From positions 372,001 to 436,000 of the forward strand of contig NZ_CP042910.1 in the NCBI RefSeq assembly GCF_008298035.1: 64,000 nt of DNA, written 5' to 3'. Positions 1-8,602 of the stretch are shown piece after piece (position 1 is the first letter of the stretch; the number at the start of each line of letters is the position of its first letter). The notes under the pieces were generated by a model. That model did not search any database and had not been told where the DNA came from. It worked only from the letters and a program-made list of their open reading frames with translations. Both the position numbers and the translations under genes were made by a program. The DNA comes from Gimesia maris (GTDB lineage Bacteria; Planctomycetota; Planctomycetia; Planctomycetales; Planctomycetaceae).

Positions 1-3000
1 GCTGAATTTCCTTTGTTTGATGCTCAGAATCAGGCGGCTGCCTTTCAGCCTGGCAAGGGCTTCCTGCGGGTTGTCGATCCCGGTGAGAAAAGCATTTTTG
101 ATTTTACTGCAGGCGATGCGATCACCCTGGAAGCATGGATCAATCCCAACTCCACGAAATCCGGACAGTTCTACTATATCATCGGGAAAGGTCGCACAAA
201 CCGGAAAGGAGTTGCCCGGGACAATCAGAATTATAGTTTGAGGCTGACCGGCTCGGAAATCAGCTTTCTGTTTTGCACCCAGCCTGAAAAAAAAGGTGAG
301 AAACCCACATACCACCGCTGGACTTCTTCCGGGGGGGGAATCAGTACCCATAACTGGCATCATGTCGCAGTCACTTACAGCTTCGGCAAAAAGAAAAGTC
401 TGAACGCGTATGTCGACGGCCAGCCTGTTTCCGGGAAATGGGATGTAGGCGGCGATACCTCGCGGACACCTGTGGTTGACAATGATGAAGTCTGGATTGG
501 TTCTTCGATGGGCGGGTCAGCAAACAGTTCCTTTAATGGACAGCTGGATGAAGTGGCCGTTTATCGGAAGGCCCTGTCTGCAAAACAGGTGGCGTCACAC
601 TTTGAATATGCGGCTTTCGATTCACAGATGGACTGGACTACGATTCCGGAAGATCGCCTCAGAGTCGATATTCTGGAAGGGATTCCCAATAAAAAATCCT
701 GGAAGTTTCGGCCGCCTCGCCTGGCGGAAACATTCACACAACCACACTTCGCTTTCATTGAAATTCCCAACCGTTATTCCGAGCGTGGCGTGAAAGTGGA
801 TCGGCCGGATCCCTTCATGGTGCGGGCAATGTCGCGCATGACGCTCCCCCAAGGGAAAAAGCGGATTCTGTTGCGTGCCCGCAATGCTGCGCGGCTCTAT
901 ATTGATGACAAACTGGTAGCAAAAACCGATTTCCACAGAATTACCAATAGCGGACACGACATCGTCTACGACGTCGATCTGAGCCTGGCGCCAAATATTC
1001 GTCCATTACACCGGGGTGATACGGAACAGGTTGTCGATTATACCGGCGATGGTAAACCGCACCGCATTCGCTTCGAGATGATCGTTGGCGGTTCCCGGCA
1101 TCGTCCTGATTTCGGAGAGACAGCGGTTTTTATCGGTAATCCCGGTGAAGATTTTCAACTTCTGACTCCGTCTGATCAGGTGGTCATGCTGACCGACAAG
1201 GACTGGCTGCCTTTCGAACGCGAATATCGTTACAGCCTGATCGCGGTGAATGCAGCACGCCGCCGGGAAGCTTCCGCGAAGGAAGATCAGTACTGGGAAT
1301 CGCGGCATCAACTTGCGAAAGCAGAGATACTCAAGCAGCCTCAAGTAAAAGTGCCATCTGCAGTCAAGGGACTGCGGGCGAATAACGCCATCGATCATTT
1401 TATCAATCTGCGACTGGCGAAAGAGCAGATTGCTCAGACACCGCTACTTGGGGATCTGGCTTTTCTAAGACGACTTTCCCTGGACACAACGGGAACTGTG
1501 CCGTCCCCAGGGCAAATTAATGCGTATCTGGCTGACGATCCGGAAACGCGGCGTGCGAAAGCGATTCAGCGTCTGATCAACGATCCCGCCTGGGCAGACA
1601 GCTGGGTTGGTTACTGGCAGGATGTGCTGGCGGAGAACCCGAATATCCTCAACCCGACATTGAATAACACCGGGCCCTTCCGCTGGTGGATTCACGAATC
1701 GTTTTATGATAACAAACCTTTCGACCGCTTCCTGACCGAACTGGTCCTGATGGAAGGCAGCAAGTATTTTGGTGGACCGGCCGGTTTTGAAATGGCTTCG
1801 CAGAACGATGCCCCGATGGCGGCCAAAGCGCATATCATTGGCCAGGCCTTCCTTGGTCTGAATATGCAGTGTGCCCGCTGTCACGATGCCCCGTTCCATG
1901 ATTTCAAACAACGCGATCTGTTCAGCCTGGCGGCCATGCTGAAGCGTTCTTCGCAAGGCGTCCCCAAAACCAGCTCGATTCCCGGTTTTGATCCCAAGTC
2001 GAATTCCATGCTCGTGTCCGTGACACTACTGCCGGGCGAGAAAGTAACACCCCAATGGACGTTCGAAGAACTGGTCAAGCCTGGCAAGTTCCCGGAAAAT
2101 TACCTGCGTTCTCCCCAGGATACGCGTCAGCAGCTGGCGGCTACGATTACCTCACCTCAAAACGAACGTTTTGTGAATGTGATTGTGAATCGTGTCTGGA
2201 AGCGGTATCTCGGGCATGGGCTGGTGGAACCGGTGGATGACTGGGATGGCCAGGAACCTTCCCACCCGGAACTGCTGAAGTATCTGTCGCAGCAGTTTGT
2301 GATTCACGGTTATGATCTGAAATATCTGTCCCAGTTGATTTTTGAGTCGGATCTGTACCAGCGCGAGGCTGCGATCGACAGTTCAAAAGTCGAAGGTTTT
2401 ACCGAAACACCTTATCATTTTTCTTCACCGGTCCTGCGTCGCATGGAAGCAGAACAGATTGTCGATTCGCTGTTTTTGATCTGCGGGAAACCCCTGGACG
2501 CCGGTCCGATGTGTATCGATATCGATGGTGCCCGCGATTATCACAGTTCACTCGATCTGGGAACGCCACGTCGCGCCTGGCAGTTTACATCCCCGTCTAA
2601 TGAACGGGATCGTCCCAGTCTGGCGCTCCCGTTCGGTCAGCCTTTTATTACTCTGCTGAAAACATTCGGCTGGCGGGACACACGTCAAAGCCCCCAAACG
2701 GTTCGCGAATCGACGTCGACCCCTCTCCAGCCGGCTCTCCTTGCCAATGGAATTTTAGGGCAGCGATTCACCCGTCTTTCTGATGACAGTGATTTCACGG
2801 AGCTGGCATTACAGGATGTAACTCTCCAGGCTTTGATTAAAACGACTGTCATGAAAACATTAACGCGTGAGCCAACCACTGAAGAGCTCAACATGTTTAC
2901 AGAACTGCTGCAGCCCGGTTTTGCTGAGCGGGTGAATCCGCAGGCCGAACTTGTCAGCCGCGAGCGATTACCGCGAAATCTGGTCAGCTGGTCTAACCAT

Positions 3001-3156
3001 GTGAATTCCCGCGCAAACGAAATTAAAGTGGAACTCGAAGGGGCAGTGAAAAAAGGAGATCCACCCACCAAACGACTCAACAATGACTGGCGGAACCGCT
3101 ACGAGGATATGCTCTGGTCTTTGTTGAATTCTCCTGAATTTCTCTTTGTGCCTTAA
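1..3156 (+). CDS. LamG-DUF1549-DUF1553 protein, 5' end cut by window edge
   Basis: The reading frame is open from base 1, and the first codons (AEFPLF) align with an internal stretch of the complete paralogue at 3468, so the true start lies upstream. A LamG/concanavalin-like domain (codons about 15-205) is followed by a linker, DUF1549 (from about codon 465) with a c-type heme motif CARCH at codons 624-628, and DUF1553 up to the C-terminal FLFVP. These large exported proteins are typical of planctomycetes and are usually paired with a DUF1501 protein; their biochemical role is unsettled, though polymer breakdown or redox functions have been suggested. The gene is one copy of a tandem duplication with a period near 3.77 kb, and parts of it are almost identical in DNA to the next copy. 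Confidence 0.93.
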   Translation, partial: AEFPLFDAQNQAAAFQPGKGFLRVVDPGEKSIFDFTAGDAITLEAWINPNSTKSGQFYYIIGKGRTNRKGVARDNQNYSLRLTGSEISFLFCTQPEKKGEKPTYHRWTSSGGGISTHNWHHVAVTYSFGKKKSLNAYVDGQPVSGKWDVGGDTSRTPVVDNDEVWIGSSMGGSANSSFNGQLDEVAVYRKALSAKQVASHFEYAAFDSQMDWTTIPEDRLRVDILEGIPNKKSWKFRPPRLAETFTQPHFAFIEIPNRYSERGVKVDRPDPFMVRAMSRMTLPQGKKRILLRARNAARLYIDDKLVAKTDFHRITNSGHDIVYDVDLSLAPNIRPLHRGDTEQVVDYTGDGKPHRIRFEMIVGGSRHRPDFGETAVFIGNPGEDFQLLTPSDQVVMLTDKDWLPFEREYRYSLIAVNAARRREASAKEDQYWESRHQLAKAEILKQPQVKVPSAVKGLRANNAIDHFINLRLAKEQIAQTPLLGDLAFLRRLSLDTTGTVPSPGQINAYLADDPETRRAKAIQRLINDPAWADSWVGYWQDVLAENPNILNPTLNNTGPFRWWIHESFYDNKPFDRFLTELVLMEGSKYFGGPAGFEMASQNDAPMAAKAHIIGQAFLGLNMQCARCHDAPFHDFKQRDLFSLAAMLKRSSQGVPKTSSIPGFDPKSNSMLVSVTLLPGEKVTPQWTFEELVKPGKFPENYLRSPQDTRQQLAATITSPQNERFVNVIVNRVWKRYLGHGLVEPVDDWDGQEPSHPELLKYLSQQFVIHGYDLKYLSQLIFESDLYQREAAIDSSKVEGFTETPYHFSSPVLRRMEAEQIVDSLFLICGKPLDAGPMCIDIDGARDYHSSLDLGTPRRAWQFTSPSNERDRPSLALPFGQPFITLLKTFGWRDTRQSPQTVRESTSTPLQPALLANGILGQRFTRLSDDSDFTELALQDVTLQALIKTTVMKTLTREPTTEELNMFTELLQPGFAERVNPQAELVSRERLPRNLVSWSNHVNSRANEIKVELEGAVKKGDPPTKRLNNDWRNRYEDMLWSLLNSPEFLFVP

Positions 3157-3212
3157 TTGATCGATGATTCGAACCGTGGATCTACTGTTCTTTTGTTATT
3201 CAGAGGTTTTCT

Positions 3213-3231
3213 CTCTTCCGTAAAGGAAGAG
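3213..3231. other. Hairpin in the spacer between the tandem paralogues
   Basis: A perfect 7-bp stem, CTCTTCC/GGAAGAG, with a 5-base loop lies 57 bases after the stop of the first paralogue. No T-run follows on either strand, so it may be a weak terminator or an mRNA-end stabiliser rather than a classical intrinsic terminator. Confidence 0.4.
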
Positions 3232-3379
3232 GCGGAAAGTCATGGTTAGAACGGGATTATCACAAAAATTTCATAAACTGGACAATCCGAGTATAATTTG
3301 CCGTGAGATCAGCGTGAGTCCCGGTATATTAGAGCAGGTCACGATTTATGACATAAATACATTCTTGTGTACAGTAATG

Positions 3380-3413
3380 TTTGTCAGATCTGGAACGTCT
3401 GGATTCTGACAAA
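3380..3413. promoter_or_regulatory. 9-bp inverted repeat upstream of second DUF1549 gene
   Basis: TTTGTCAGA at 3380-3388 is repeated in inverted orientation as TCTGACAAA at 3405-3413, with a 16-base spacer. It sits 54 bases before the ATG at 3468 in a 311-base gene-free spacer. The position fits an operator or a 5'-leader hairpin; no regulator can be assigned from the sequence. I see no gene in the rest of the 3157-3467 spacer. Confidence 0.45.
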
Positions 3414-3467
3414 ACTCGCCTGCTGTGACGTCTCTACTGAGAACCTGATTTTCTGGAATGGCCCGCT

Positions 3468-6400
3468 ATGAACTACCTGGCATTCGTTAAGCGTTCCCTG
3501 TGCCTGCTGAGTCTCTTACTCGCCCTGCCTCTGTCAGTGAGCCCCTCCTATGCTCAAAAAGAGAAAAGTACCGAAGTAGAGAAAAGTCCCAAAGTTGCTG
3601 TACCTGCCAGCTATCGGGAGCTGATTCTGGCAGACCAGCCGACACTCTACTGGAATTTTGAGACACCCGCTTCAGAGGGTTACAACAGCGTCGTGACTGT
3701 GAAGGAAAAGACCGAACCAGTCAAAGCCCTCATCAGCGGCAAGTTAGCAAAGCCCGCGGCTGGTCCCCGTCCTTCTGAGTTTCCTTTATTTACCACGGAG
3801 AATCAGGCAGCAGCGTTTCAGCCTGGCGAAGGTTTTCTGCGGGTGGTAGATCCGGGTGAGAAGAGTATTCTCGATTTTACTGCCGGAGATGCGATCACCT
3901 TGGAAGCATGGGTGAATCTGAATTCCACAAAAGCGGGTCGTCATTATTACATCATTGGAAAAGGACGGACGAACCGCAAAGGGGTTGCCCGGGACAATCA
4001 GAACTATGGCTTCCGAATTACGGGTTCTGAAATCAGTTTTCTGTTTCGGGGGCAACCTGAGAAGAAAGATCAGAAAGCCGATTTCCATCGCTGGACGTCG
4101 AGTGGAGCCGGGATCAGTGCTCACAACTGGCATCATGTTGCTGTGACTTACACCTTCGGTAAAAAGAAGAGCCTGAAGGCGTATGTCGACGGTCAGCCTG
4201 TTTCCGGGAAATGGGATATGGGCGGCGATACGACGCTGGCACCCGTGGTTGACAACGACGAAGTCTGGATCGGTTCTTCCATGGGAGGATCCGCTGGCAG
4301 CTCGTTTGACGGTCAGCTGGATGAACTGGCCGTTTATCGGAAGGCCCTGTCTGCAAAACAGGTGGCGTCACATTTCAAATATCATGCTCCTGATCCACAG
4401 ATCGACTGGACGGCAATTCCGGAAGATCGGGTCAAAGTGGATATTCTGGAAGGGATTCCCAATAAGAAATCCTGGACGTTCCGGCCTCCGCGTCTGGCGG
4501 AATCGTTCACGCAACCGCATTTTGCGTTAATTGAGATTCCGAATCGCTATTCCGAACGGGGTGTGAAAGTGGATCGCCCCGATCCTTATCTGGTGCGTGC
4601 CATGTCGAATGTTGTGATTCCGAAAGGGAAAAAGCGGATTCTGATTCGTGCCCGCAATGCTTCGCGACTGTATATCGATGACAAACTGGTTGCTGAGACC
4701 GGCTTCCATAAGATTTCCGGTTCGGCTCACGGTCACGTATTTAAAGTGGATCGCAGCCTGGCGCCGAATATTCGCCCTCTGCATCGAGGTGATCAGGAAA
4801 AAGTCATTGAATTTACCGGTGATGGAAAACCACATCACGTTCGCTTCGAAATGATTGTCGGCGGATCTCGGCATCGTCCCGATTTCGGAGAGACAGCGGT
4901 TTTTATCGGTAATCCCGGTGAAGATTTTCAACTTCTGACTCCGTCTGATCAGCTGGTCATGCTGACCGACAAGGACTGGCTGCCTTTCGAGCGCGAATAT
5001 CGTTACAGCCTGATCGCGGTGAATGCAGCACGCCGCCGGGAAGCTTCCGCGAAGGAAGATCAGTACTGGGAATCGCGGCATCAACTTGCAAAAGCAGAGA
5101 TTCTCAAGCAGCCTCAGGTGAATGTGCCATCTGCAGTCAAGGGACTGCGGGCGAATAACGCCATCGATCATTTTATCAATCAGCGACTGGCGAAAGAGCA
5201 GATTGCCCAGGCACCGCTACTTGGGGATCTGGCTTTTCTAAGACGACTTTCCCTGGACACAACGGGAACCGTACCCACCACAGAGCAGATCAGCGCATAC
5301 CTCGCCGACGATCCAAAAACACGACGTGCGAAAGCAATTCAACGATTCATCCATGATCCCGCCTGGGCAGACAGTTGGGTTGGATACTGGCAGGACGTGC
5401 TCGCAGAAAACCCGAACATCGTGAACCCGACATTGAATAATACCGGACCTTTCCGCTGGTGGATTCACGAATCGTTTTATGATAACAAACCTTTCGACCG
5501 CTTCCTGACTGAACTGGTCATGATGGAAGGCAGCAAGTATTTTGGTGGACCGGCCGGTTTTGAAATGGCTTCGCAGAACGATGCCCCGATGGCGGCCAAA
5601 GCACATATTATCGGTCAGACTTTCCTGGGACTGAATATGCAGTGTGCCCGTTGTCACGATGCACCCTTCCATGATTTCAAACAACGCGATCTGTTCAGCC
5701 TGGCGGCCATGCTGAAGCGTTCTTCGCAAGGCGTCCCCAAAACCAGCTCTGTTCCCGGCTTTGATTTCAACTCGAATTCCATGTTGATTTCGGTCACGCT
5801 GCTGCCTGGCGAGAAAGTGACGCCCCAATGGACATTCGAAGAACTGGTCAAACCGGGCGCCTATCCCCAAAATTACCTGCGTTCTCCCCAGGATACGCGT
5901 CAGCAACTGGCGGCTACGATTACTTCACCTCAAAACGAACGTTTTGCCAACGTGATTGTGAATCGTGTCTGGAAACGGTATCTCGGGCATGGTCTGGTGG
6001 AACCGGTGGATGACTGGGATGGCCAGGAACCTTCCCACCCGGAACTGCTGAAGTATCTGTCGCAGCAGTTTGTGATTCACGGTTATGATCTGAAATATCT
6101 GTCCCAGTTGATTTTTGAGTCGGATCTGTACCAGCGCGAGGCTGCGATCGACAGTTCAAAAGTCGAAGGTTTTACCGAAACACCTTATCATTTTTCTTCA
6201 CCGGTCCTGCGTCGCATGGAAGCAGAACAGATTGTCGATTCGCTGTTTTTGATCTGCGGGAAACCCCTGGACGCCGGTCCGATGTGTATCGATATCGATG
6301 GTGCCCGCGATTACCACAGTTCACTCGATCTGGGAACGCCACGTCGCGCCTGGCAGTTTACATCCCCGTCCAATGAGCGGGATCGTCCCAGTCTGGCACT

Positions 6401-6929
6401 GCCTTTCGGACAGCCCTTTATTACCTTGCTGAAAACGTTCGGCTGGCGGGACACACGTCAAAGTCCTTTGACGGTTCGCGAATATGCCGCAACGGCTCTG
6501 CAGCCTGCCATTCTCGCAAATGGTGTTGTCGGCAAACGGTTCACCCGACTTTCTGATGACAGCGATTTTACGGCTCTCGCTTTAGAGAAACAGTCTGTAG
6601 CGGACTTGGTCAAGTCTACGTTTCTGAAGACACTCACGCGTGAACCGACGCAGAGTGAGTTGAAAATGTTTGTCGAACTGCTGCAGCCTGGTTATACAGA
6701 ACGTGTTAACGAGAAGGCAGAAATCGTTACACGAGAACCACTGCCACGCAATCTGGTCGCCTGGTCAAACCATTTGAGTCCCGAGGCCAATGAAATCAAA
6801 GTGTCTCTGGAATCATCTGTCAAAGAAGGGGACCTTCCTACGCAACGTTTGAACGCGGATTGGCGAAATCGCTATGAAGATATGCTCTGGACGTTGTTGA
6901 ACTCTCCGGAGTTCCTGTTTGTACCATAA
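3468..6929 (+). CDS. Exported LamG-DUF1549-DUF1553 protein (complete paralogue)
   Basis: 1153 residues. A Sec-type signal peptide (about 1-29, ending PSYAQ) is followed by a LamG/concanavalin-like domain (about 110-310), a beta-rich linker (320-560), DUF1549 (about 564-770) with the CxxCH heme-attachment motif at C726-H730, and DUF1553 (about 800-1150). The protein should be periplasmic or cell-surface. There is no separate PSCyt1 domain; LamG takes its place. The gene is a tandem duplicate of the preceding truncated gene and is followed 56 bases later by the DUF1501 gene, the usual partner of this family. Start chosen because the signal peptide begins there. Function inferred only at family level. 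Confidence 0.95.
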   Translation: MNYLAFVKRSLCLLSLLLALPLSVSPSYAQKEKSTEVEKSPKVAVPASYRELILADQPTLYWNFETPASEGYNSVVTVKEKTEPVKALISGKLAKPAAGPRPSEFPLFTTENQAAAFQPGEGFLRVVDPGEKSILDFTAGDAITLEAWVNLNSTKAGRHYYIIGKGRTNRKGVARDNQNYGFRITGSEISFLFRGQPEKKDQKADFHRWTSSGAGISAHNWHHVAVTYTFGKKKSLKAYVDGQPVSGKWDMGGDTTLAPVVDNDEVWIGSSMGGSAGSSFDGQLDELAVYRKALSAKQVASHFKYHAPDPQIDWTAIPEDRVKVDILEGIPNKKSWTFRPPRLAESFTQPHFALIEIPNRYSERGVKVDRPDPYLVRAMSNVVIPKGKKRILIRARNASRLYIDDKLVAETGFHKISGSAHGHVFKVDRSLAPNIRPLHRGDQEKVIEFTGDGKPHHVRFEMIVGGSRHRPDFGETAVFIGNPGEDFQLLTPSDQLVMLTDKDWLPFEREYRYSLIAVNAARRREASAKEDQYWESRHQLAKAEILKQPQVNVPSAVKGLRANNAIDHFINQRLAKEQIAQAPLLGDLAFLRRLSLDTTGTVPTTEQISAYLADDPKTRRAKAIQRFIHDPAWADSWVGYWQDVLAENPNIVNPTLNNTGPFRWWIHESFYDNKPFDRFLTELVMMEGSKYFGGPAGFEMASQNDAPMAAKAHIIGQTFLGLNMQCARCHDAPFHDFKQRDLFSLAAMLKRSSQGVPKTSSVPGFDFNSNSMLISVTLLPGEKVTPQWTFEELVKPGAYPQNYLRSPQDTRQQLAATITSPQNERFANVIVNRVWKRYLGHGLVEPVDDWDGQEPSHPELLKYLSQQFVIHGYDLKYLSQLIFESDLYQREAAIDSSKVEGFTETPYHFSSPVLRRMEAEQIVDSLFLICGKPLDAGPMCIDIDGARDYHSSLDLGTPRRAWQFTSPSNERDRPSLALPFGQPFITLLKTFGWRDTRQSPLTVREYAATALQPAILANGVVGKRFTRLSDDSDFTALALEKQSVADLVKSTFLKTLTREPTQSELKMFVELLQPGYTERVNEKAEIVTREPLPRNLVAWSNHLSPEANEIKVSLESSVKEGDLPTQRLNADWRNRYEDMLWTLLNSPEFLFVP

Positions 6930-6985: not shown

Positions 6986-8326
6986 ATGAATGCATTTGAA
7001 TCTACTCGTCGTGACTTTTTAAGACAGGCGTCACTCACCGGTCTGGCTGCGTCTGCTCTGGGAACTCCCTGGCAGCAGTTACTGGCGTCTGAACAACACG
7101 CTGATAAAAAACATGGTGCGAAAAAACTCCCAATGCCGGTGGGTAAAGCCGAGCATTGTATCATGATCTGGCTGGGCGGCGGTTCCTGCCACATCGATAC
7201 CTGGGACCCGAAACGCAAGGGAGATCCCAAGGCCAAAAAGGCCGGTTCCTATTACGATTCGATTCCGACTGCAATTAAAGGCACCGAAGTCTGTGAGCAT
7301 CTTTCTAAATGCGCACCGATACTCGACCGGTTCAACATTGTGAGATCGGTGCATCACGAAGTGATCGACGAGCATGCGGCTGCCACAAACCGTATGCATA
7401 CCGGACGACCGACAACCGGAACGATTACCTACCCCTCAGTCGGTTCCGTAGTGGCGCATCAACGGGGATCTGCCAGTGAGCATGCTCCCGCCTATGTTTT
7501 GATCGGATATCCTAACGTAACACGTGGTCCCGGGTTCCTGGGCAGTCAGGCGGGTTACATCTATCTGACCGATACCAGTGCCGGACCGAGTGGCTTCACA
7601 CGGTCTTCCCGCGTGAATCAGAGTCGTCAGGATCGTCGCGAACGTCTGCTGACGAAGATGCGGGCTGAGTTCCGCCAGAAAAGTGTGGGGGGGCAGACGA
7701 TTCAGGATTATGACCAGTCGGTAGCGGAAGCGCTGCGTCTGTCGGGTCCTGAATTCATGAAAGTGTTCCAGCTGGACAATGAGAAAAGCGATCTTCGCAA
7801 TTCTTATGGTGGTGAGTTCGGCCAGCGCTGTCTGCTGTCGCGCCGACTGATTCAGTCAGGTGTACGGTTCATTGAAGTGTCACATAATCTGAACTTTGTA
7901 AATGGTACCGGCTGGGATACGCACAATGACGGCCAGCTCAATCAGCATCTGTTGATCAAAGAGCTGGATTCTGCGCTGTCGACGCTGGTGCTCGATCTGG
8001 AGAAAAATAAGCTATTGGATAAAACGTTGATCGTCGTCGCTTCCGAATTTGGCCGTCCCGCAAAATTTGATTCCGGCGGAGGACGCGGCCATCAGTCCAA
8101 GGCTTTCAGTGTGGTCCTGGCAGGCGGCGGACTGCAGAATGGAAAAACCATTGGTGTGACGAATGAACTGGGTGAAGCAATTGTTTCCCGCCCGGTCTCC
8201 GTTCCCGATCTGCACGCCACGATCTACGCTTCACTGGGCATTGACCCCAGTGAAGAACTCTTTGCCGGCGATCGTCCTGTGCCGATTACGGATATGGGCG
8301 ATCCCGTGCGGGAACTGTTTTCCTGA
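6986..8326 (+). CDS. DUF1501 protein with Tat signal (sulfatase-like fold)
   Basis: 446 residues. The N-terminus carries a twin-arginine motif, S-T-R-R-D-F-L-R-Q, followed by a hydrophobic Ala-rich stretch, so export in folded form by Tat is expected. The body matches DUF1501, a family related to alkaline phosphatases and sulfatases, with a W-L-G-G-G-S-C-H-I-D-T motif near residue 65, a VASEFGRP motif near 354 and a GRGHQS stretch near 368 as likely metal-site residues. It lies 56 bases after the DUF1553 gene, the standard planctomycete pairing, and both upstream paralogues appear to share this single partner. The exact substrate is not known for the family. Confidence 0.93.
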   Translation: MNAFESTRRDFLRQASLTGLAASALGTPWQQLLASEQHADKKHGAKKLPMPVGKAEHCIMIWLGGGSCHIDTWDPKRKGDPKAKKAGSYYDSIPTAIKGTEVCEHLSKCAPILDRFNIVRSVHHEVIDEHAAATNRMHTGRPTTGTITYPSVGSVVAHQRGSASEHAPAYVLIGYPNVTRGPGFLGSQAGYIYLTDTSAGPSGFTRSSRVNQSRQDRRERLLTKMRAEFRQKSVGGQTIQDYDQSVAEALRLSGPEFMKVFQLDNEKSDLRNSYGGEFGQRCLLSRRLIQSGVRFIEVSHNLNFVNGTGWDTHNDGQLNQHLLIKELDSALSTLVLDLEKNKLLDKTLIVVASEFGRPAKFDSGGGRGHQSKAFSVVLAGGGLQNGKTIGVTNELGEAIVSRPVSVPDLHATIYASLGIDPSEELFAGDRPVPITDMGDPVRELFS

Positions 8327-8396: not shown

Positions 8397-8602
8397 CCGG
8401 AGCGTTCTGGCGGGAAAGCGATCCTGACTTGGCTGACATCTGCACGCAGGCCGTGTATTCTTAACGGATCAGGATTCCAGTCGTTGACTGTGTCCAGTTT
8501 TACTGTAGCGTCTCCGGGGCCATTCGGACCGAGTATCATAGATCGAGGACGCTATGGTAAAATGTGATGCGTTCCAGATGTTCCAGCTTAGAGGTTTATT
8601 TT

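What the first reader, a model, noticed from the sequence alone, without database searches (positions are those of the whole stretch)
1..6929. Tandem 3.77-kb duplication with mosaic identity, suggesting gene conversion
The two LamG-DUF1549-DUF1553 genes differ in about a quarter of bases in parts such as 730-790 versus 4498-4558, yet are about 97-99 percent identical in sharply bounded tracts: about 1113-1496/4882-5268, 1685-1840/5458-5613 and 2101-2615/5874-6388 (counts by eye). Even silent sites match in the tracts. That pattern points to recent conversion of the catalytic/heme core while the LamG region and the C-terminus diverge, so the copies may bind different ligands with the same core.
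Basis: seen in the sequence. Interest (0 to 1): 0.65.

Follow-up and report, generated by a model that had tools for sequence, protein, structure and literature searches.

The report
Domain-restricted gene conversion in tandem genes
Two neighbouring copies of a large secreted protein gene in a marine planctomycete keep copying the DNA of their shared core from one to the other, while their presumed sugar-binding heads stay different, a pattern seen across the genus Gimesia.

Summary
Confirmed. Genes A (starts 311 bases left of the window, ends 3156) and B (3468-6929) are tandem copies: LamG + PSCyt2(DUF1549) + PSD1(DUF1553). Three tracts are 96-98% identical (B 4881-5269, 5451-5749, 5869-6397; one exact run of 320 bases); silent divergence is 0.08-0.22 in them, 0.87-2.39 elsewhere. 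The sister species lacks them and its orthologues are silently diverged there (0.59-1.09), so silent constraint is excluded. Of 12 congeneric pairs, four keep a significant silent run after correction. Core trees group copies by genome or lineage; the LamG tree groups them by copy type.

Against: in two species the A copy keeps only 2 of the 15 residues, and two closed genomes have one copy.

Best reading: conversion on a conserved core, with selection keeping two heads distinct. Concerted evolution is a known kind. Ligands and core chemistry are unknown; the predicted core had no convincing PDB match.

The parts
1..3156 (+). Gene A (5' part lies left of the window; GTG start at window -311, genome C1:371,689): signal peptide - LamG - second beta domain - PSCyt2 - PSD1
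   Evidence: open frame; start inferred from the homologous leader and signal peptide; Pfam (run from a TTG three codons earlier)
3468..6929 (+). Gene B, 1153 aa, same architecture
103..594 (+). LamG (Laminin_G_3) domain of A
   Evidence: Pfam 82 bits
3876..4367 (+). LamG domain of B (aa 137-300); carries 8 of the 15 A/B-specific residues
   Evidence: Pfam 79.4 bits
4431..4910 (+). Second beta domain of B (about aa 322-481); aa 417-425 carry 5 A/B-specific residues
   Evidence: AlphaFold2 model; no Pfam match for window 4368-4964
5163..5723 (+). PSCyt2 (DUF1549) domain of B
   Evidence: Pfam 131.6 bits
5643..5657 (+). single CxxCH (CARCH) motif of B, aa 726-730, invariant in 47 of 47 aligned sequences; in A at window 1870-1884
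5895..6680 (+). PSD1 (DUF1553) domain of B
   Evidence: Pfam 155.1 bits
4881..5269 (+). Converted tract 1 in B (partner A 1108-1496), aa 472-601
   Evidence: 10 mismatches in 389; dS 0.08; AU
5451..5749 (+). Converted tract 2 in B (partner A 1678-1976), aa 662-761
   Evidence: 13 mismatches in 299; dS 0.22; AU
5869..6397 (+). Converted tract 3 in B (partner A 2096-2624), aa 801-977, with exact run 5994-6313 (A 2221-2540)
   Evidence: 10 mismatches in 529; dS 0.08; AU
1108..1496 (+). Converted tract 1 in A
1678..1976 (+). Converted tract 2 in A
2096..2624 (+). Converted tract 3 in A
3157..3467 (+). Spacer and 5' leader of B, homologous to the leader of A; inverted repeat at 3380-3413
   Evidence: leader alignments and tree; position
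6986..8326 (+). DUF1501 gene with Tat signal, 56 bases after B; a gene with a similar N-terminus follows in the other five loci looked at

Best explanation
A single LamG-PSCyt2-PSD1 gene was duplicated in tandem, with its leader, before the sampled Gimesia lineages diverged. Since then, homologous recombination between the neighbouring copies (RecA-dependent conversion; inferred, not shown) has overwritten stretches of one copy with the other, at intervals. Exchange succeeds and is tolerated mainly in the core (end of the second beta domain to about two thirds of PSD1), where purifying selection keeps the copies alike, so they stay good recombination substrates and conversion costs little. Exchange in LamG, at aa 417-425 of the second beta domain and at two C-terminal sites is mostly removed by selection, because these residues make two different binding heads. 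In the window's species at least three tracts were converted after the split from its closest sampled relative. Crossovers also uncouple the modules: leader plus signal peptide have changed partners between copies in one lineage. Most likely function: two secreted proteins with the same core, delivered to two different polysaccharides. The function is inferred from the LamG fold and published genome context and is the least certain step.
For: Mosaic silent divergence and permutation test. Orthologue control: in the tracts G000 and G014 orthologues differ at silent sites by dS 0.59-1.09, the G000 copies by 0.08-0.22. Informative sites G000 vs G014 (orthologue: own-genome: swapped) are 55:2:0 in LamG, 64:3:2 in the second beta domain, 62:5:4 in the C-terminus, but 1:14:1, 6:20:0 and 2:30:0 in the tracts. 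AU tests on 6 of the 12 pairs: all-A/all-B tree accepted in LamG (0.75), rejected in T1, T2, T3 (7.9e-88, 3.9e-8, 2.5e-7); pairing of the G000 copies accepted in T1-T3 (0.67, 0.69, 0.49), rejected in LamG (3.8e-6), second beta domain (7e-42) and C-terminus (6e-45). Profile over 13 comparisons among six pairs: own-genome share 0.84-0.97 in aa 751-930 and 0.88-0.92 in 541-630, but 0.17-0.21 in 151-210 and 0.22 in 391-420. Nine comparisons among five pairs: silent codons in aa 661-930 are 25:444:37; amino-acid sites in 151-210 are 48:0:3 and in 391-425 43:3:2, while silent sites there are saturated (17:18:19; 4:12:10). 15 A/B-specific residues in ten pairs, none of them among the 165 core sites of 470 variable sites (hypergeometric P 0.0013, sites taken as independent). 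At aa 946, inside the exact run, G000_B has the residue of all ten A copies where the other nine B copies have Ser. Only these two loci in the genome are close at DNA level; the next match is 177 bases at 73%.
Against: Six of 12 pairs give no significant longest silent run (G014, G013, G016, G009, G008, G012; by scored segments G009 and G014 are nominal at 0.013 and 0.042), and dS in G013 is 0.96 or more in all nine regions: exchange is intermittent. In the C-terminus the all-A/all-B tree (0.0027) and the lineage tree (0.0046) are both rejected, and in the second beta domain both are accepted (0.45, 0.12), so the simple 'types kept outside the core' holds cleanly only for LamG. In G004 and G010, left out of the 15-site count, the A copy keeps the A residue at 2 of 15 sites, and LamG groups by lineage (support 1.00). 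Ala at 946 also occurs in G004, G010, single copies and two outgroups, so it may be retained rather than converted. LamG dN/dS is about 0.1: no sign of positive selection. G004, G006, G007, G010, G011 and G015 are drafts, several with contigs ending in or beside the genes, so exact runs there (446 bases in G007, 200 in G010) could be collapse. Donor is mixed: 35 vs 36, 12 vs 7 and 35 vs 32 sites for A vs B in T1, T2, T3. No ligand, heme or enzyme activity is shown.
Confidence: 0.65

Rival explanations
1. Silent sites in the tracts are conserved by selection (codon usage, RNA structure), with no recombination.
For: The core is under strong amino-acid constraint: dN is about 0.01 in windows over aa 634-783 even in G013.
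Against: The same tracts are silently diverged between G000 and G014 orthologues (dS 0.59-1.09) and between the copies of G014 (0.69-0.92) and of G013 (0.96 to saturated). AU rejects all-A/all-B trees in the tracts.
Confidence: 0.02
2. Assembly artefact: reads of one copy were used to build both.
For: Several draft congeners break in or beside these genes; exact runs reach 320 bases in G000. The sequencing method of G000 is not known to me.
Against: G000 is one closed 7.8 Mb contig, and its tracts are separated by gaps of 181 and 119 bases at 79.6 and 77.3% identity. In closed genome G009 the two copies group together in two core segments (support 0.81 and 0.94) at moderate dS (0.23-1.02 in windows over aa 519-933), which collapse cannot make.
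Confidence: 0.04
3. Independent recent tandem duplications in each lineage, followed by fast divergence of the ends.
For: Core trees alone look like lineage-specific duplicates.
Against: 15 residues separate A from B in ten pairs, A being the upstream copy by position in nine (G007 lies on two contigs). The LamG all-A/all-B tree is accepted and the lineage tree rejected (0.034). The same neighbours flank the six loci inspected.
Confidence: 0.04
4. Conversion is real, but its limits reflect only sequence identity: LamG and the ends diverged past the threshold for recombination, with no selection for two functions.
For: Conversion tracks the conserved core; silent sites in LamG are saturated; recombination is known to fall with divergence (recalled). 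The A copies of G004/G010 lost most A residues without losing the gene.
Against: Amino-acid differences in aa 151-210 and 391-425 are the same across lineages (48:0:3, 43:3:2), so each type is itself under constraint. The stretch between them, aa 301-360, groups by genome more often (0.66-0.72).
Confidence: 0.3

Closest known systems
mtrA-1/mtrA-2 of methanogens (PMC4632066; abstract, start of the text and two discussion sections read)
   Same: Tandem duplicates; one domain homogenised by recurrent conversion, another kept different; maintained across species.
   Different: There the differing part is a transmembrane domain gained by fusion; here all parts are homologous and the differing parts are a LamG head, a short stretch of a second domain and C-terminal sites. 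Archaea, not planctomycetes.
Long-lasting recurrent concerted evolution genes in prokaryotes (PMC6053082; abstract, one section and passages read)
   Same: Paralogues resemble each other within a genome more than orthologues, repeatedly.
   Different: 26 genes, not including this family in the parts I saw; the word planctomycete does not occur in its main text. Here the effect is confined to part of the gene.
Divergence peaks under conversion: human red/green opsins (review PMC3924837, passages) and Tigriopus GOT1 (PMC3728101, abstract)
   Same: Islands of divergence that persist despite conversion mark sites under selection for difference.
   Different: Eukaryotic cases; here the island pattern is seen in a bacterial genus.
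Helicobacter pylori babA/babB (search listing with starts of abstracts only)
   Same: Recombining outer-membrane adhesin paralogues.
   Different: Described there as antigenic variation; nothing of the kind is shown here.
[quoted passage not shown] PMC2754498 passage)
   Same: PSCyt2 with PSD1, in some cases with LamG (pfam13385), which is counted there as a CBM.
   Different: Those passages describe occurrence, domain combinations and expression; function stated as unknown. No work on duplicate pairs was seen.

Membership tests
Concerted evolution by interlocus gene conversion | Paralogues within a genome closer than orthologues, at silent sites | tested here: met
   Core region:
Concerted evolution by interlocus gene conversion | Duplication older than the species split | tested here: met
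   All-A/all-B tree accepted in LamG; 15 A/B-specific residues in ten pairs
Concerted evolution by interlocus gene conversion | Bounded tracts with significant runs of silent identity | tested here: met
   Longest run P 1e-4 in G000, G007, G010 and 0.0036 in G004 (these 4 of 12 pass Bonferroni at 0.05); 0.0045 in G001 and 0.0054 in G005 do not; other 6 not significant
Concerted evolution by interlocus gene conversion | Non-reciprocal transfer with a donor | tested here: inconclusive
   Donor mixed; the N-terminal swap looks reciprocal
Selection-kept divergence peak (opsin type) | Same differences fixed between copies across species inside an otherwise homogenised gene | tested here: met
   15 sites in 10 of 12 pairs; with G004 and G010 added, 7 of the 15 sites stay disjoint (read)
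Selection-kept divergence peak (opsin type) | The differing residues change function | not testable with these tools
   No ligand data
PSCyt2/PSD1 (DUF1549/DUF1553) protein | Both Pfam domains over cut-off | tested here: met
   both copies
c-type cytochrome | CxxCH with covalent heme | tested here: inconclusive
   CxxCH invariant in 47 of 47 sequences; heme binding not shown
Carbohydrate-binding LamG (ConA-like) module | Fold | tested here: met
   Pfam over cut-off; best structural matches are arabinanase AbnA and its isolated domain 4 (5hon, with an arabinose oligomer), Z 19.7-20.0, rmsd 2.6-2.7, 194-195 residues
Carbohydrate-binding LamG (ConA-like) module | Binds a sugar | not testable with these tools
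   A shared fold shows no function

The most novel reading that the evidence does not exclude
The pair is a modular, self-renewing two-headed system: promoter leader plus signal peptide, lectin heads and core move as separate modules between tandem copies, while selection holds two head types apart across most of a genus. The conversion map then marks, residue by residue, what makes two planctomycete secreted proteins of unknown function different, including a Cys at LamG aa 194 and a Val at aa 1103 that are derived in A (all 7 outgroups have Arg and Leu).
Probability: 0.4. Interest if true: 0.55.

Novelty: new member of a known kind. Interest (0 to 1): 0.42.

Why it matters
This genome has 68 PSCyt2 matches, and the survey I read says nothing is known of the function of such genes (PMC5615132, passages). 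Conversion between two copies acts as a natural scan: it erases what need not differ and leaves what must. It points to 15 residues, in LamG, one stretch of a second domain and the C-terminus, as what separates two paralogues, which makes the question of their ligands testable. It also warns that trees of such genes built on the core alone would date the duplication wrongly.

Tried and rejected
Silent-site constraint, collapse of reads, and separate duplications were weighed as rivals and found wanting. GC-biased conversion: third-position GC in the tracts does not stand out in the 11 copies looked at. Direction of conversion: mixed, not resolved. Another donor in the same genome: none close. 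Rfam: no match at E <= 1 over 4.6 kb around the leaders. A conserved RNA structure in the leader: weak consensus, covariation term -0.87 of -6.41 kcal/mol; not pursued. Solved relatives by sequence: best E 0.086. In the structural comparison of B, 46 of the 50 rows listed are clostridial neurotoxin-type proteins; they share the common lectin-like fold with LamG, which shows no function. Fold of the core alone (aa 500-1153, pLDDT 86.2, pTM 0.89): Foldseek 0 matches at E <= 0.001, best E 1.3; VIA-align best Z 4.9. This does not show a new fold. The second beta domain was not folded alone. Position of the specific residues on the model was not measured, as coordinates were not at hand. Other tandem pairs in the genome were not surveyed. 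In print: searches for DUF1549+DUF1553 (1 paper), gene conversion+planctomycet (22 papers, 20 listed) and Gimesia+gene conversion (0 papers) showed no report of this pair. For conversion alone I would say about 0.9.
Full report
WHAT IS THERE. The window is positions 372,001-436,000 of a closed 7.8 Mb genome. Records of the same genus bear titles such as 'uncultured Gimesia sp.', so the genus is Gimesia or what the database joins with it. Gene B (3468-6929) encodes 1153 residues. Gene A ends at 3156 and begins left of the window: its leader and signal peptide align with those of other copies at a GTG codon at window -311, where most copies have ATG. Both carry Laminin_G_3, PSCyt2 (DUF1549) and PSD1 (DUF1553). 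A model of B (mean pLDDT 87.8, pTM 0.83) shows a signal helix, beta strands of LamG, a second beta domain (about aa 322-481) without a Pfam match, and a helical core. DUF1501 with a Tat signal follows 56 bases after B.

IS THE OBSERVATION RIGHT. Yes. The offset is 3773, so two of the quoted B coordinates are 4-5 bases off. Silent divergence between A and B is 0.08, 0.22 and 0.08 in the tracts as I limit them and 0.87-2.39 outside. Of 10,000 shuffles of 534 silent polymorphic codon columns none gave a run as long as the 68 seen in G000.

IS IT CONVERSION. The closest congener, G014, has the same pair. Outside the tracts A matches A and B matches B: informative sites (orthologue: own-genome: swapped) are 55:2:0 in LamG, 64:3:2 in the second beta domain, 62:5:4 in the C-terminus. 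Inside they are 1:14:1, 6:20:0, 2:30:0. Orthologues are silently diverged in the tracts (0.59-1.09), so silent sites there are free to change. The 320-base run has no difference between A and B, while G000 and G014 differ there by dS 0.73-0.76; the last event is therefore much younger than the split from G014. AU tests on G000, G014, G013, G016, G009 and G005 (6 of 12 pairs): in T1, T2 and T3 a tree with all A against all B is rejected (7.9e-88, 3.9e-8, 2.5e-7), G000/G014 orthology is rejected (0.012, 0.031, 1.3e-4) and pairing of the two G000 copies is accepted. In LamG the all-A/all-B tree is accepted (0.75), the lineage tree rejected (0.034) and own pairing rejected (3.8e-6). Not as clean: in the second beta domain both the type tree (0.45) and the lineage tree (0.12) are accepted; in the C-terminus both are rejected (0.0027, 0.0046) and only G000/G014 orthology holds (0.54). 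In the short gap 5270-5450 the type tree is rejected (6e-4) and own pairing is not (0.078).

GENUS-WIDE. Ten genomes, the window's included, have the full pair on one contig (G000, G014, G013, G016, G009, G005, G008, G001, G012, G004); in G007 and G010 the copies lie on two contigs; G002 and G003 (closed) have one copy at this locus between the same neighbours; G015, G006 and G011 hold cut copies. Longest-run P is 1e-4 in G000, G007 and G010, 0.0036 in G004, 0.0045 in G001, 0.0054 in G005, and above 0.2 in G014, G013, G016, G009, G008 and G012; the first four pass Bonferroni at 0.05. Scored segments give 5e-4 in G000, G001, G004 and G007, 0.002 in G010, 0.013 in G009, 0.042 in G014, 0.072 in G005 and above 0.2 in the other four. 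G004, G005, G007, G008 and G010 are not closed. Over 13 comparisons among G000, G014, G013, G009, G005 and G007 the own-genome share is 0.88-0.92 in aa 541-630 and 0.84-0.97 in 751-930, and falls to 0.17-0.21 in 151-210, 0.22 in 391-420, 0.34 in 241-270 and 0.31 in 1081-1110; it is also low in aa 1-60 (0.18-0.19), where swapped sites are many. Smaller dips lie at 631-660 and 931-960 (0.50, 0.48).

ISLANDS. In ten pairs, 15 residues separate all A from all B: 8 in LamG (159, 194, 195, 202, 205, 251, 257, 258), 5 at 417-425, 2 in the C-terminus (1020, 1103), none in 472-977 (P 0.0013 for 0 of 15, sites taken as independent). In nine comparisons among five pairs, amino-acid sites are 48:0:3 and 43:3:2 in the two main islands, while silent sites there are saturated (17:18:19, 4:12:10); in aa 661-930 silent codons are 25:444:37. 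So the types are old and each is under constraint. Two sites can be polarised: all seven outgroups have Arg at 194 and Leu at 1103, so A is derived there (Cys, Val). I left G004 and G010 out of that count because their types were unclear. Their A copies have the A residue only at 1020 and 1103, the B residue at 6 or 7 sites and neither at the rest; with them 7 of the 15 sites stay disjoint (195, 202, 251, 257, 418, 1020, 1103; read), and their LamG domains group with each other (support 1.00). They group with the single-copy genomes in the middle core tree (0.98), so the A type may be decaying in that lineage.

MODULES. In the N-terminal part (window B 3468-3875) G000 A resembles G013 B and the reverse: 4:9:32 sites. 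The all-A/all-B tree is rejected (2.5e-5) and a tree swapped between G000/G014 and G013/G016 accepted (0.31). The leader tree, with 24 leaders, splits the same way (support 0.996). Two crossovers between tandem copies, for example excision and reinsertion at another point, would do this; that is inference.

HOW IT PROBABLY WORKS. Shown: recurrent own-genome homogenisation of the core, retention of two types in islands. Inferred: RecA-type recombination; selection as the cause of the islands; two ligands. The LamG part's best structural match is arabinanase AbnA, whose isolated domain 4 was solved with an arabinose oligomer (5hon; Z 19.7, 194 residues, rmsd 2.6). Most other rows are toxin binding domains with the same widespread fold, which shows no function. 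A survey of Verrucomicrobia genomes finds sulfatase genes often near PSCyt genes, CBMs in some of them, and says nothing is known of their function (PMC5615132, passages). A rival I cannot exclude is that identity alone limits exchange; I give it 0.3 for the cause of the islands, within the same conversion process.

WHAT IS KNOWN. Domain-restricted concerted evolution is described for mtrA (PMC4632066), long-lasting concerted evolution for 26 prokaryote genes (PMC6053082), and divergence islands under conversion for opsins and GOT1 (PMC3924837 passages; PMC3728101 abstract). This is a well-supported new member of a known kind. My searches found no report on this pair.

Noticed in passing
window 8486-8574; L039:5570-5667 (window -430 to -333): A dispersed hairpin-forming repeat of about 95 bases (98-base MFE -41.8 kcal/mol). 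40 matches in this genome, itself included (only 40 of 140-144 candidates were scored), and matches in 17 of 17 genomes of the genus, the window's own included, from 1 to 44 each. One copy sits in the leader of gene A about 20 bases before its GTG start and is absent there in the sister species G014; it looks like a MITE- or REP-like element (label recalled).
   Followed up: partly
window 3380-3413 and homologous leaders: Inverted repeat TTTGTCAGA...TCTGACAAA in the leader of B; the arms vary between species with some paired changes, and A of G009, G005, G008, G001 and G012 lacks this stretch.
   Followed up: partly
gene A start, L039:5689 (window -311): Gene A of G000 and G014 starts with GTG where most copies have ATG.
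   Followed up: partly
core of B, aa 500-1153 (window 4965-6926): Confident predicted helical structure (pLDDT 86.2, pTM 0.89) for a widespread family, with no convincing match in the PDB search.
   Followed up: partly
G000 genome: 68 PSCyt2 (DUF1549) matches in one genome.
   Followed up: no
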